The notes beneath the pieces were generated by a model. The model was not told where the DNA came from, ran no database searches, and worked only from the letters and a program-made list of their open reading frames with translations. A program made the translations under genes and the position numbers. Positions 2,494-44,156 of a stretch of DNA of 64,000 nt are shown piece by piece. The stretch is from Ferrimonas lipolytica. GTDB lineage: Bacteria; Pseudomonadota; Gammaproteobacteria; Enterobacterales; Shewanellaceae. The stretch is taken from positions 744,001 through 808,000 of the forward strand of contig NZ_CP051180.1 of NCBI RefSeq assembly GCF_012295575.1, written 5' to 3'. The first letter of the stretch is position 1, and each line of letters starts with the position of its first letter.

Positions 2494-2521
2494 AAAGCGT
2501 CAGCCTCGGCTGGCGCTTTTT
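2494..2521 (+). terminator. Intrinsic terminator after the tetraheme cytochrome, disrupted by an element in its T-tract
   Basis: AAAGCG-T-CAGCC pairs with GGCTG-G-CGCTTT, followed by TTTTTGTT at 2517-2524. Those eight bases are duplicated at 2815-2822, on the far side of the inserted repeat element, so the element landed in the T-tract. Confidence 0.85.
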
Positions 2522-2524
2522 GTT

Positions 2525-2814
2525 GACTCTGTACCAACTAACCGTGTTCTTTCCATTGCTGTTAAAGCACCGGCTAGGCGAGTGTTGATACAAGGGTAAA
2601 GCGCTGCCGTTGTTGATCGTCTGCCGCATTGGAGCAGTTCAGCGAGGTGCTTTGGACTGCGACCTAAGGCAAGGGGGGATTCCAAAGGGGGTGAAGCTTC
2701 GCCCTAATGAATACAAGAATGTGCCGTCGCCACCGCGACATCATCCTTTAAAGCACCACAATCGGTACAGTCGAAGGCTTGATATTAACCTCAACACTTA
2801 GCTGCGACACCGCC
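2525..2814 (-). mobile_element. MITE-like element, copy 1 (reverse orientation)
   Basis: This 290-bp segment is a reverse-complement homologue of 38601-38894 and 42263-42552. Its ends (GACTCTGTACCAACTAA at the left, the complement of GGCGGTGTCGCAGCTAAG at the right) are degenerate versions of the terminal inverted repeats best seen in copy 3. It is flanked by a perfect 8-bp direct repeat TTTTTGTT (2517-2524 and 2815-2822), the signature of transposition. It has no convincing open reading frame: the 63-codon frame inside it is not conserved in the other copies. It separates the cytochrome terminator from the queE promoter. Confidence 0.85.
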
Positions 2815-2821
2815 TTTTTGT

Positions 2822-2850
2822 TTGGTATTGAAAACGGTTGTGCCTACAAT
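2822..2850 (+). promoter_or_regulatory. Candidate sigma-70 promoter of queE
   Basis: TTGGTA (2822-2827), 17 bp, TACAAT (2845-2850). It sits directly after the right target duplication of the MITE copy, 23 bp before the queE start. Confidence 0.5.
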
Positions 2851-36795: not shown

Positions 36796-36939
36796 GTATC
36801 TAAAGCGATTCAACGCCGCTGGGTTGGTTTGCGGTCGCGACAGCGCTCATGCTTCCACCAAGCGTGTAGGTGTAGCCGTAGCCGAATAAGTCATTGAGTT
36901 AACCGCGATAAACTTCAACAGCTAACTATGACACAGCCC

Positions 36940-38439: not shown

Positions 38440-38960
38440 TTGCAGCAGGCACAGCCGTTGGGAATTGCGCCGGTGCTGCAACATGGTGAAGTTAGTTTGG
38501 CTGAATCAGCCAGCATTATGGAATAGCTGCTGTTATTGGTACCGCAGTCGATGCTTGGTTCTGTGGCCACAACAGTTAACGACTGGCAGTATGATGAATA
38601 GGCTATGTCACAGTTAAGTGTTGAGGTTTATAGCAAGCCTTCGGCTGTACCGATTGCAGTACTCTTAAGGGGTTATGTCGCGGTGGCGACGGCACATTCT
38701 TGTATGCATTAGGGGGGGAGCTTAGCCTTCTTTGGAATCCCCCCTTTGTCTTAGGTCGCAGTCCAAAACGCTTCGCTGGGCTGCTCTAATGCGGCAGAAG
38801 CTCAACGGCGGTAGTGCTTTCCCCTTGTATTAATACTCGCCTAGCCGGTGTTTTAACAGCATTGGAAAGAACAATACTTAGTTGGTACACAGCCAATGAA
38901 TGGCTTCATTTTGCTGCAGGGGTCGATGGTTATGTCGATGGTGTTGTTTGCGGATAAACA
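38440..38960 (+). pseudogene. Degraded glutathione S-transferase remnant, split by a MITE
   Basis: Reading in frame from 38440 gives QPLGIAPVLQHGEVSLAESASIME, the classical GST N-domain pattern (proline-valine-leucine, then ES-x-x-I for glutathione binding). It is followed by a TAG at 38524-38526 where the family has the Tyr of EYLL, then an in-frame stretch to NDWQYDE. The MITE occupies 38601-38894. After it, EWLHFAAG and, after a frameshift, GSMVMSMVLF continue the GST linker (WLHFAEGSLM in homologues). The N-terminal 40 or so residues and most of the C-domain are missing. No intact GST was found in the window. Confidence 0.55.
38601..38894 (+). mobile_element. MITE-like element, copy 2
   Basis: This 294-bp copy begins GGCTATGTCACAGTTAAG and ends with TTGGTACACAGCC. 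It is largely alignable to copies 1 and 3, including the internal GTCGCGGTGGCGAC palindrome and the AGTCCAAA hairpin region. Flanks share ATGAAT (38594-38599 and 38896-38901), offset by one base on each side, a likely slightly altered target duplication. It interrupts the GST remnant. Confidence 0.85.
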
Positions 38961-39061: not shown

Positions 39062-39655
39062 GTGACTCAATTTGCTCAGCAAATCGCTTTCTTGCAAGAG
39101 ATTGAAAAATTAAAGGCGGTATACCGTCAGACCACAGTGTTGGCGGATAACGATCGCTCAGAAAACAGCGCCGAGCATAGCTGGCATATTGCGTTAGTTG
39201 CCCACGTGTTACGGCCTTACGCTAATGGCGAGGTGCAAATCGAACGAGTGATCATGATGCTGCTGATCCACGATATCGTTGAAGTGGATGCCGGCGATAC
39301 GTTTGCCTTCGCGGATGATGTTGATATGGACGCGCAATCTCAGCAAGAGTTACTAGCAGCAAAGCGGATCTTTGGTTTATTGCCAGCAGAGCAGGGCCAA
39401 CCGTTGATTGAGCTTTGGCATGAATTTGAGCTGGCCGAGAGTGCCGATGCCGAGTTTGCCAAGGCGATGGACCGGATCTTACCGTTGATGCAGAACATGG
39501 CTAACGATGGCGGCAGCTGGGCACGACACACGGTAAGCAAAAGCAAAGTGCTGGAGCGTAACCGCTATCTACAGGAGAGTGCGCCACGGCTGTGGCAATA
39601 CGCGTGCGAGCAGATTGATATTGCTGTGGCAAATGGCTGGCTAACTGACAACTAA
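39062..39655 (+). CDS. HD-domain phosphohydrolase
   Basis: The 197-residue protein carries the HD-superfamily metal motif: His in SAEHSWHIALVAH, the HD pair in LLIHDIVEVDAGDT, and a later Asp in AKAMDRILP. It belongs with HDDC2/YfbR-like 5'-deoxynucleotidase-type HD proteins but is distinct from E. coli YfbR. A role in nucleotide hydrolysis is inferred from family. The start is a GTG at 39062 with TAGGAAA upstream; the 5' end abuts the GST remnant. Confidence 0.85.
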   Translation: MTQFAQQIAFLQEIEKLKAVYRQTTVLADNDRSENSAEHSWHIALVAHVLRPYANGEVQIERVIMMLLIHDIVEVDAGDTFAFADDVDMDAQSQQELLAAKRIFGLLPAEQGQPLIELWHEFELAESADAEFAKAMDRILPLMQNMANDGGSWARHTVSKSKVLERNRYLQESAPRLWQYACEQIDIAVANGWLTDN

Positions 39656-42185: not shown

Positions 42186-42262
42186 AGCCGCTTCTCCTTA
42201 TGGCTTTGCTTACTTAACCAGCAGCGTGAGCAATATTCAAGCTTTGCTTAGAAACAATAAAA

Positions 42263-42552
42263 GGCTGTGTAACAGTTAAGTGTTGAGGTTTATATCAAGC
42301 CTTCGGCTGCAGCGATTGCAGTGCTTTGGGGGGAGGATGTCGCGGTGGCGACGGCACATTCTTGTATGCATTAGGGGGTAGCTCCACCCCCTTTAGAATC
42401 CCTTTGCCTTAGGTCGCAGTCCAAAGCGTTTCGCTGGACTGCTCCAATGCGGCAGAAGATCAACGACGGCAATGCTTAACCCCTGTATCGTCGTTCGCCT
42501 AGCAGGTGCTTTAACTGTATTAGAAAGAACAACACTTAATTGGTACACAGCC
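42263..42552 (+). mobile_element. MITE-like element, copy 3 (best preserved ends)
   Basis: The 290-bp element begins GGCTGTGTAACAGTTAAGTG and ends with the complement of GGCTGTGTACCAATTAAGTG, giving terminal inverted repeats that match at 21 of 23 positions. It is flanked by the 7-bp direct repeat AATAAAA (42256-42262 and 42553-42559). Its right end abuts the nqrM terminator, whose T-tract forms part of the duplication. No protein-coding frame is evident; an autonomous partner elsewhere in the genome is assumed. Confidence 0.92.
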
Positions 42553-42555
42553 AAT

Positions 42556-42589
42556 AAAAACGCCGTTGATAGGGGATATCAACGGCGTT
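42556..42589 (-). terminator. nqr operon terminator (after nqrM)
   Basis: On the minus strand CGCCGTTGA pairs with TCAACGGCG, followed by TTTTTATT. The T-tract is duplicated beyond the MITE copy. Confidence 0.85.
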
Positions 42590-42935: not shown

Positions 42936-44156
42936 TTAGTCACCGAAATCATCCAAAAGGATGTTTTCATCTTCAACCCCTAAGTCTTTCAACATCTTAA
43001 TCACTGAAGAGTTCATGATTGGTGGACCACACATGTAGTACTCACAATCCTCTGGCGCTTTGTGATTCTTTAAAAACTCTTCGAAGATAACGTTGTGGAT
43101 GAAGCCGGTGTAGCCAGTCCAGTTATCTTCTGGAAGCGGGTCGGATAGTGCCACATGCCATGTAAAGTTGTCATTTTCAGCCGCTAATTTATCAAACTCG
43201 TCGTCGTAGAAGATTTCACGCACTGAGCGAGCGCCGTACCAGAAGCTCATTTTACGCTTGGTTTTTACACCTTTGAGTTGATTAAAGACATGGGAGCGCA
43301 TCGGTGCCATACCGGCGCCCCCGCCGATAAATACCATCTCAGCATCACTGTTTTCTTTGACGAAGAATTCACCGAATGGGCCCGAGATAATCACTTTATC
43401 GCCAGCTTTTAAGTTGAAAATGTACGATGACATCTGCCCCGGTGGTAGATCATTGCTTGGCGGAGTAGCGATCCGCACGTTGAGCATGATAAGCCCCTGT
43501 TCTTCAGGGTAGTTGGCCATCGAGTAAGCGCGGAGTACGTCTTCATCGACGACGGACTGTAGCTCAAACAGGTTGTATTTTTCCCAGTCATCGCGATATT
43601 GCGCTGGAATATCAAAGTCTTTGTAATCAACGCTGTGGGCTGGGGCTTCAATTTGAATGTAACCGCCGGCTTTAAATGGAACCGCTTCGCCTTCAGGGAT
43701 CTGCAGGCGTAGTTCTTTAATGAAGGTGGCTACGTTGTCGTTGGAGACGACTTCACACTCCCACTTTTTGACACCGAAGATCTCGTCCTCGATCTCCAAC
43801 TCCATGTCACCTTTTACCGCAACTTGGCAGGCGAGGCGACAACCCTCTTTGGCTTCTTTCTTGGTGATGTGGTCACGCTCGGTAGGGAGGATATCGCCGC
43901 CACCGGATTTTACGTGCACACGGCATTGGCCACAGGTACCACCGCCGCCACAGGCTGACGGGATAAAGATATCTTTGCTTGCCAAGGCGCCAAGAAGTTT
44001 GTCGCCAGCACTGGTGGTGACGGACTTATCAGGATCACCGTTAATATTCAGCGTTACATCGCCGCTGGCGACCAGTTTGCTTTTGGCGAATAGGATCACT
44101 GCGACCAGCAAGCACACCACGGTGGTGAACATGCCGATACCGATTGCCATTTCCAT
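42936..44156 (-). CDS. nqrF: Na+-NQR subunit F, NADH dehydrogenase component
   Basis: NqrF oxidises NADH and feeds electrons into the sodium pump. The 406-residue protein has an N-terminal membrane helix (about 5-25), a 2Fe-2S ferredoxin domain with Cys69, Cys75, Cys78 and Cys110, an FAD-binding domain ([11 protein letters not shown]) and an NAD domain ([14 protein letters not shown], ending with the CGPP motif and an aromatic-poor tail). Sixth subunit gene of the operon. Confidence 0.97.

What the first reader, a model, noticed from the sequence alone, without database searches (positions are those of the whole stretch)
42263..42552. A family of about 290-bp non-autonomous mobile elements with three copies in 40 kb
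Sequences at 2525-2814 (reverse), 38601-38894 and 42263-42552 are homologous over their whole length. The best copy has terminal inverted repeats that match at 21 of 23 positions and begin GGCTGTGTA. Copy 3 is flanked by the 7-bp repeat AATAAAA and copy 1 by the perfect 8-bp repeat TTTTTGTT. No copy carries a transposase, so it is a MITE mobilised by an autonomous element elsewhere. GG-starting ends and 7-8 bp A/T-rich duplications recall families such as IS1595 or ISL3, but this is not settled. Three copies in 64 kb predict many in the genome.
Basis: seen in the sequence. Interest (0 to 1): 0.85.

Follow-up and report, generated by a model that had tools for sequence, protein, structure and literature searches.

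The report
Terminator-seeking IS1595-type MITE family
A bacterial genome carries a large, apparently old family of 290-base passenger transposons whose ends match an IS1595-type jumping gene, and many copies sit in the run of T's just after a gene's stop-transcription hairpin, where an insertion should do little harm.

Summary
The three copies are 85% identical, and copy 3 has 21/23 matching inverted ends. The genome (a Ferrimonas species, inferred) holds 220-255 copies of the core. With a 28-base probe none of 13 congeners has it; with a looser probe one sister genome has 39.

Target duplications are 8 bp: 54 of 92 copies with both ends match within one base (3.1 expected). The sister genome keeps the unoccupied site of copy 1 with one copy of the duplicated bases.

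The IS1595 lead holds. An IS1595-family element with the same GGCTGTGT ends and 8-bp duplication lies decayed in this genome and intact in F. futtsuensis. No ISL3 transposase was found. Among 64 copies compared the closest pair is 96.2% identical, so the burst looks old.

Two additions. (1) Many targets are T-tracts of terminator-like hairpins: 21 of 54 sites against about 5% of matched controls. Seven of 7 Telluria/Massilia IS1595 sites do the same, but 0 of 2 other chromosomal and 2 of 11 plasmid sites. The duplication leaves a T-tract beside the hairpin. (2) About 60 bp of the core recurs in another family's repeats that lack these ends, so the element may be a chimera.

The parts
2525..2814 (-). 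MITE copy 1, 290 bp
   Evidence: orthologous empty site in sister genome G013
2517..2524 (+). 8-bp target duplication TTTTTGTT, left side of copy 1; it is the T-tract of the hairpin before it
2815..2822 (+). 8-bp target duplication TTTTTGTT, right side of copy 1
2495..2516 (+). terminator-like hairpin AAGCGTCAGCCTCGGCTGGCGC, followed by the T-tract into which copy 1 inserted; about 30 bp after the end of a cytochrome-like ORF (2156-2464)
   Evidence: counted as stem 8 (row L047)
38601..38894 (+). MITE copy 2, 294 bp, between rpoS (minus strand) and an ORF at 39062
42263..42552 (+). MITE copy 3, 290 bp (best-preserved ends)
42263..42285 (+). left terminal inverted repeat of copy 3
   Evidence: 21/23 to the right end
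42530..42552 (-). right terminal inverted repeat of copy 3
42256..42262 (+). 7-bp duplication AATAAAA, left of copy 3
42553..42559 (+). 7-bp duplication AATAAAA, right of copy 3; on the minus strand it is the T-tract of the terminator at 42559-42589
42559..42589 (-). intrinsic-terminator-like hairpin (13 pairs) whose T-tract is the target of copy 3; lies after nqrF (42936-44156, minus strand)
   Evidence: (1 found, 0.6 expected in shuffles)
42337..42367 (+). conserved core 31-mer in copy 3 (start of the core module)
   Evidence: place 786337-786367 of the genome
38675..38705 (+). conserved core 31-mer in copy 2
   Evidence: place 782675-782705
2711..2741 (-). conserved core 31-mer in copy 1
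   Evidence: place 746711-746741
36830..36938 (-). truncated fourth copy (first ~94 positions only), just downstream of rpoS
   Evidence: 22.6 bits

Best explanation
These are copies of a non-autonomous, IS1595-type MITE. A DDE transposase supplied in trans by an IS1595-family insertion sequence with GGCTGTGT ends bound the inner part of the shared ends, moved the 290-bp unit, and joined it across an 8-bp stagger in A/T-rich, usually intergenic DNA, very often the T-tract of an intrinsic terminator. Because the 8 bp are duplicated, the hairpin keeps a T-tract beside it, so such insertions should be nearly neutral and can accumulate. The family spread in one Ferrimonas lineage to some 220-255 copies, diverged, and was stranded when the transposase source decayed. 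Shown: copy number, ends, duplications, empty sites, matching IS, excess of hairpin-flanked targets. Inferred: mobilisation in trans, order of events, preserved termination, neutrality.
For: 220 and 255 core copies with controls 0 and 1. 8-bp duplication in 54 of 92 copies with both ends (34 exact; shuffled pairing mean 3.1, maximum 7 of 200 shuffles). Sister genome G013: 5 flank pairs aligned, none holds the element, 2 with a clean junction carrying one copy of the target, copy 1 among them. Matching IS: decayed copy in own genome, ends 21/23 and 19/23 to the MITE consensus A end; intact 1023-bp IS in congener G005, ends 19/23 and 21/23, duplication CTTTTTTG, 315-aa transposase scoring 185.4 bits against NCBIfam IS1595 (cut-off 75), identical to F. 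futtsuensis. Targets: 21 of 54 abut a hairpin of 7 or more pairs against 4.7% of 4126 locus-matched A/T-rich 8-mers pooled, 5.4% as mean of loci, binomial 1.9e-13; 39 of 92 if all copies are taken. Sites avoid genes: 8 of 88 lie in an open frame of 100 codons or more against 85% of 2000 random window positions.
Against: Transposition in trans is not shown. Homology between MITE and IS was seen only in the ends; the interior is not a deleted IS. 38 of 92 copies show no 8-bp duplication within one base. 33 of 54 duplicated sites have no adjacent hairpin. The terminator test was prompted by sites in the same set. In wider IS1595 relatives the preference is uneven: 7 of 7 in Telluria/Massilia but 0 of 2 other chromosomal sites and 2 of 11 plasmid sites. 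ISfinder was not available.
Confidence: 0.9

Rival explanations
1. ISL3-type or other GG-ended transposase mobilised the MITE.
For: GG ends and 8-bp duplications occur in more than one IS family (recalled).
Against: No PF01610 match in the genome (4 of 4 candidates scored). The only IS found here that shares these ends encodes an IS1595-type transposase, in two genomes.
Confidence: 0.03
2. Not a transposon but a dispersed structured repeat (REP/BIME-like or an RNA gene family) kept for a host function.
For: Internal hairpins; core positions 76-106 differ from the subfamily consensus at 2-4% against 5-15% for 27-75 and 11-13% for 201-267; some compensatory change between types in one helix.
Against: Inverted ends, 8-bp duplications and empty sites. 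The second hairpin is broken in most own copies aligned. RNAalifold found 11 pairs, none with a two-sided change, covariation term 0.01. No Rfam match in the window.
Confidence: 0.04
3. Terminator association is only a by-product of preferring A/T-rich intergenic 8-mers.
For: All targets are A/T-rich and mostly intergenic; 2 of 11 plasmid IS sites only.
Against: Controls were A/T-rich 8-mers of the same loci: 4.7-5.4% against 39%; 7.9% against 7 of 7 in Telluria/Massilia. Window intergenic control 7.3%, 8.6% with G/C flanks.
Confidence: 0.2
4. The core is native to the MITE and the look-alike repeats in the other family acquired it from Ferrimonas, or the resemblance is convergent.
For: Model hits were weak (E 5.5e-4 to 0.008 per genome over 394 genomes, about 4 expected by chance at 0.01).
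Against: Literal 21-base motif within one mismatch in 4 other genomes of 394, controls 0, with the following hairpin and AATCCC/ACTCCC shared.
Confidence: 0.4

Closest known systems
IS1595 family (zinc-ribbon plus DDE transposase; groups such as ISSod11, ISPna2)
   Same: GG-starting ends, 8-bp duplication, same end sequence as an intact IS1595 element of F. futtsuensis (family features from passages of PMC8101967)
   Different: The MITE carries no transposase and shares only the ends; terminator targeting was not in the passages I saw. Which group the Ferrimonas IS belongs to was not tested.
MITEAba12 of Acinetobacter (PMC6382973, passages seen)
   Same: MITE with parent IS inferred from shared ends and duplication length; part of the copies keep duplications; targets A/T-rich
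   Different: 113 bp, 9-bp duplications, up to 22 copies in a genome, no target motif seen; here 290 bp, 8 bp, 220-255 copies, terminator T-tracts
Correia elements of Neisseria, ERIC of enterobacteria (recalled)
   Same: short, intergenic, hundreds of copies, inverted ends
   Different: different sequence, ends and target (Correia TA, ERIC TA; recalled)
TwoAYGGAY RNA, Rfam RF01731
   Same: One of four repeats of the other family that share the core module (L246) passes its cut-off, 45.7 against 43 bits; two more fall just below
   Different: No such match in the window (gathering scores) or in the five Ferrimonas loci scanned

Membership tests
MITE | short, many near-full-length copies, no transposase | tested here: met
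   290 bp typical; 220-255 core copies
MITE | terminal inverted repeats | tested here: met
   21/23 in copy 3; 92 of 164 collected hits have both ends by the script's rule, the rest being partial, decayed or cut by the locus
MITE | target duplication and empty site | tested here: met
   54/92 within one base; clean empty site in 2 of 5 aligned sister loci, element absent from all 5
MITE | mobilised in trans by an autonomous element | not testable with these tools
   inferred from matching ends only
IS1595-type ends | ends shared with an IS encoding an IS1595 transposase | tested here: met
   19-21 of 23; NF033547 185.4 bits, cut-off 75; PF12762 42.9, cut-off 27
IS1595-type ends | 8-bp duplication for both IS and MITE | tested here: met
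   IS: CTTTTTTG (G005), TATTAAAA/TATTAAAG (own); MITE
IS1595 family as a full member | own transposase gene | tested here: not met
   290 bp, none; so the element is an IS1595-type MITE, not an IS1595 IS
ISL3 | ISL3 transposase with these ends | tested here: not met
   PF01610 absent from the genome
REP/RAYT | no duplication, single palindrome, tyrosine transposase | tested here: not met
   8-bp duplications present; RAYT gene not searched
Rfam families | covariance model match | tested here: not met
   0 matches at gathering score in the window

The most novel reading that the evidence does not exclude
IS1595 elements with GGCTGTGT-type ends are terminator-seeking: they prefer the T-tract of intrinsic terminators, and their 8-bp duplication restores that tract so the terminator survives. 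In Ferrimonas such ends captured a pre-existing structured repeat core, still found without these ends in another family of the order, and so made a chimeric MITE that reached about 250 copies at little cost.
Probability: 0.4. Interest if true: 0.65.

Novelty: new member of a known kind. Interest (0 to 1): 0.5.

Why it matters
Where a transposon lands decides whether it can spread. A transposase that often chooses terminator T-tracts, and whose duplication leaves one T-tract beside the hairpin, would explain how a small element fills a compact genome without breaking genes, and it is directly testable: sequence new insertions, measure termination with and without the element. If the shared core is real, it also shows that a transposon's ends can pick up a repeat that already existed.

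Tried and rejected
ISL3 as parent: no transposase found. Phage or plasmid origin: no blastn match of copy 3 in phages or plasmids, no exact core 22-mer in IMG/VR or in 84,980 GTDB species outside the own genome. Rfam: none in the window; one chance-level match below cut-off in five Ferrimonas loci. A conserved RNA fold for the whole element: weak (energy -11.7, covariation term 0.01, 0 of 11 pairs with a two-sided change); on a structure that I drew by hand, 8 of 22 pairs show a two-sided change and covariation exceeds 500 shuffles and the slid versions, which the tool warns relatedness can cause. Outward promoter or inner terminator of copy 3: one promoter-like site found against 0.7 expected, outside the element; the one terminator found is the flanking one. 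Recent activity: not seen; closest pair 96.2% among 64 copies, a sample drawn from search lists, not from all copies. The same core in Pseudoalteromonas plasmids: two partial matches, 63 bases at 82-84%; a whole repeat of the other family found nothing there.

Selection of rows. The 164 collected hits came from the 136 own loci and the window, which were chosen from capped lists (the core 31-mer lists favour intact cores); 92 had both ends by my rule, 54 of these an 8-bp duplication, 88 flanks long enough for, 64 a length of 284-296. One search was given 21 of the 28 IS relatives; an end pair with duplication was found in 11, of which 2 (F. futtsuensis contig ends) lack one flank, leaving 9 sites: 7 hairpin-flanked, 0 of 2 for the Burkholderiales MAG and Nitrosomonas MAG. 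Plasmids: 14 regions fetched of 30 listed hits (121 records); ends found in 11, hairpin in 2. The F. futtsuensis/G005 IS flanks show stems of 6 pairs by the same rule, below the cut-off of 7, on 2 of 4 contig flanks, and are in none of the counts. The hairpin rule allowed loops up to 8 and up to 9.

Full report
Observation. Ends match at 21/23 in copy 3, 17/23 in copy 2, 13/23 in copy 1. Copy 1 has an 8/8 duplication, copy 3 a 7-bp one, copy 2 a decayed one. A fourth fragment lies at 36830-36938.

Extent. The window is base 744001-808000 of a single 4,133,133-base contig. A 31-base core probe finds 220 sites within 3 mismatches, control 0; a 20-base probe finds 255 within 2 mismatches, control 1. 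At about 290 bp each this would be near 1.8% of the genome (inference). A 28-base probe finds 226 sites here and none in 13 congeners. The 20-base probe finds 39 in congener G013, 0 in G005, 0 in G006 and 1 in G010, where reversed controls give 1, 2, 3 and 2. Full-length blastn in 152 genomes of the family matched only the own genome and G013, with few candidates scored per genome. No other GTDB species of the named collection has the exact 22-mer.

Host. The genus is Ferrimonas by inference: the IS of congener G005 is identical in protein, at four contig ends, to that of F. futtsuensis DSM 18154.

Anatomy. Complete copies are mostly 286-294 bp. Two subfamilies differ in the left end (37 A, 26 B, 1 unclear of 64). 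Of 92 copies with both ends, 54 have an 8-bp duplication within one mismatch and 34 an exact one; shuffled pairing gives 3.1 on average and 7 at most. The target is six to eight A/T bases of eight in 53 of 54, with C or T favoured at its first and A, T or G at its last position, and G/C about two bases outside. Only 8 of 88 sites lie in an open frame of 100 codons or more, against 85% of random window positions.

Empty sites. Flanks of five copies were aligned to sister genome G013; none of the five has the element there. Two junctions are clean. For copy 1, G013 reads ACAAACAAAAAGCGCCAGC once, where the window has AACAAAAA on both sides of the element; L066 behaves alike. The other three sister intervals are too diverged at the junction to show the duplication.

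Parent. The own genome has one match to the IS1595 transposase domain, over the cut-off (28.4 against 27 bits) but with two in-frame stops. It sits in a 1029-bp element that starts GGCTGTGTCTTAATTAGCTGTTG and ends in the inverted GGCTGTGTTTGAGTTAACTGTTG, flanked by TATTAAAA/TATTAAAG. Congener G005 has an intact relative, 75% identical in DNA, 1023 bp, flanked by CTTTTTTG, with a 315-aa IS1595 transposase. These ends match the MITE consensus A end at 19-21 of 23. The interior of the MITE shows no homology to the IS by eye beyond the ends. The ISL3 domain is absent.

Terminators. At 21 of 54 duplicated sites a hairpin of at least 7 pairs ends within two bases of the A/T target, on the T-run side, 10 on the left and 11 on the right of the element; locus-matched A/T 8-mers do so in 195 of 4126 cases (mean of loci 5.4%; binomial 1.9e-13), and 39 of all 92 copies do. 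Window controls are 7.3% intergenic and 2.3% genic. Copy 1 lies in the T-tract after the hairpin 2495-2516, copy 3 in that of the hairpin 42559-42589. The idea came from these sites, so an independent set matters: 7 of 7 sites of related IS in Telluria antibiotica (6) and Massilia pinisoli (1) are hairpin-flanked, against 7.9% of 505 controls. Two other chromosomal sites are not, and of 11 plasmid sites 2 are, against 1.2% of 4014 controls. So the preference is strong in the GGCTGTGT-ended group tested and uneven beyond it. That termination survives is inferred from the duplicated T-tract, not measured.

Core. Against the subfamily consensus, positions 76-106 differ at 2-4%, 9-26 at 2-4%, the right end at 4-5%, but 27-75 at 5-15% and 201-267 at 11-13%; the pattern holds in the 28 copies chosen by whole-length similarity. 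G013 has diverged relatives, some with 480-bp bodies and three of six checked without a recognisable end. A covariance model of the core gave weak hits in three genomes of another family of the order, at a level where about four chance hits are expected, but all show the motif TGTCGCGGTGGCGACGRCACC plus the next hairpin and AATCCC or a near variant. A 21-base probe within one mismatch finds it in 4 other genomes of 394, all in that family (9, 2, 1 and 1 sites), control 0. Their repeats show no IS1595 end (best 8-10 mismatches of 23 in 13 loci, as in background) and differ in the rest. One passes the cut-off for TwoAYGGAY RNA. Hence the chimera reading; the direction of transfer is open.

Literature. 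Of PMC8101967 and PMC6382973 I saw passages only. Ten library searches (listings) gave no paper on a Ferrimonas MITE or, in the titles and abstract openings listed, on terminator targeting by IS1595; Siguier et al. 2009 on the IS1595 family was seen only as a reference and is not held, so prior description cannot be excluded.

Verdict. A well-supported new member of a known kind, with a target habit worth testing.

Noticed in passing
G000:C1:909390-910299 (locus L020): Three MITE copies in tandem with about 20 bp between; the first keeps an older form of the core (CCCAAAGGGG instead of ATTCTTGTATGCATTAGGGG).
   Followed up: partly
G000:C1:819178-819599 and 211649-212105: Nested or adjacent copies: one MITE next to pieces of another.
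   Followed up: no
window 36830-36938: Truncated fourth copy just downstream of rpoS; copy 2 lies upstream of the same gene.
   Followed up: no
L242, L234, L232, L213 (sister genome G013): Longer relatives (about 480 bp) with the same left end, core and extra hairpins around CATCC(A)TG.
   Followed up: partly
L244-L248, L256-L274 (other family of the order): Multi-hairpin intergenic repeats of about 230 bp starting at TGTCGCGGTGGCGAC with CATCCATG palindromes; one passes the Rfam cut-off for TwoAYGGAY. Mode of mobility unknown.
   Followed up: partly
L002 (G000:C1:245441-245732): A MITE copy sits inside the loop of a GC-rich hairpin (GGCGCCGGC...GCCGGCGCC) rather than beside it.
   Followed up: no
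L158 (Telluria antibiotica contig20): A second GGCTGTGT lies 8 bp after the right end of the IS, as if another end were adjacent.
   Followed up: no
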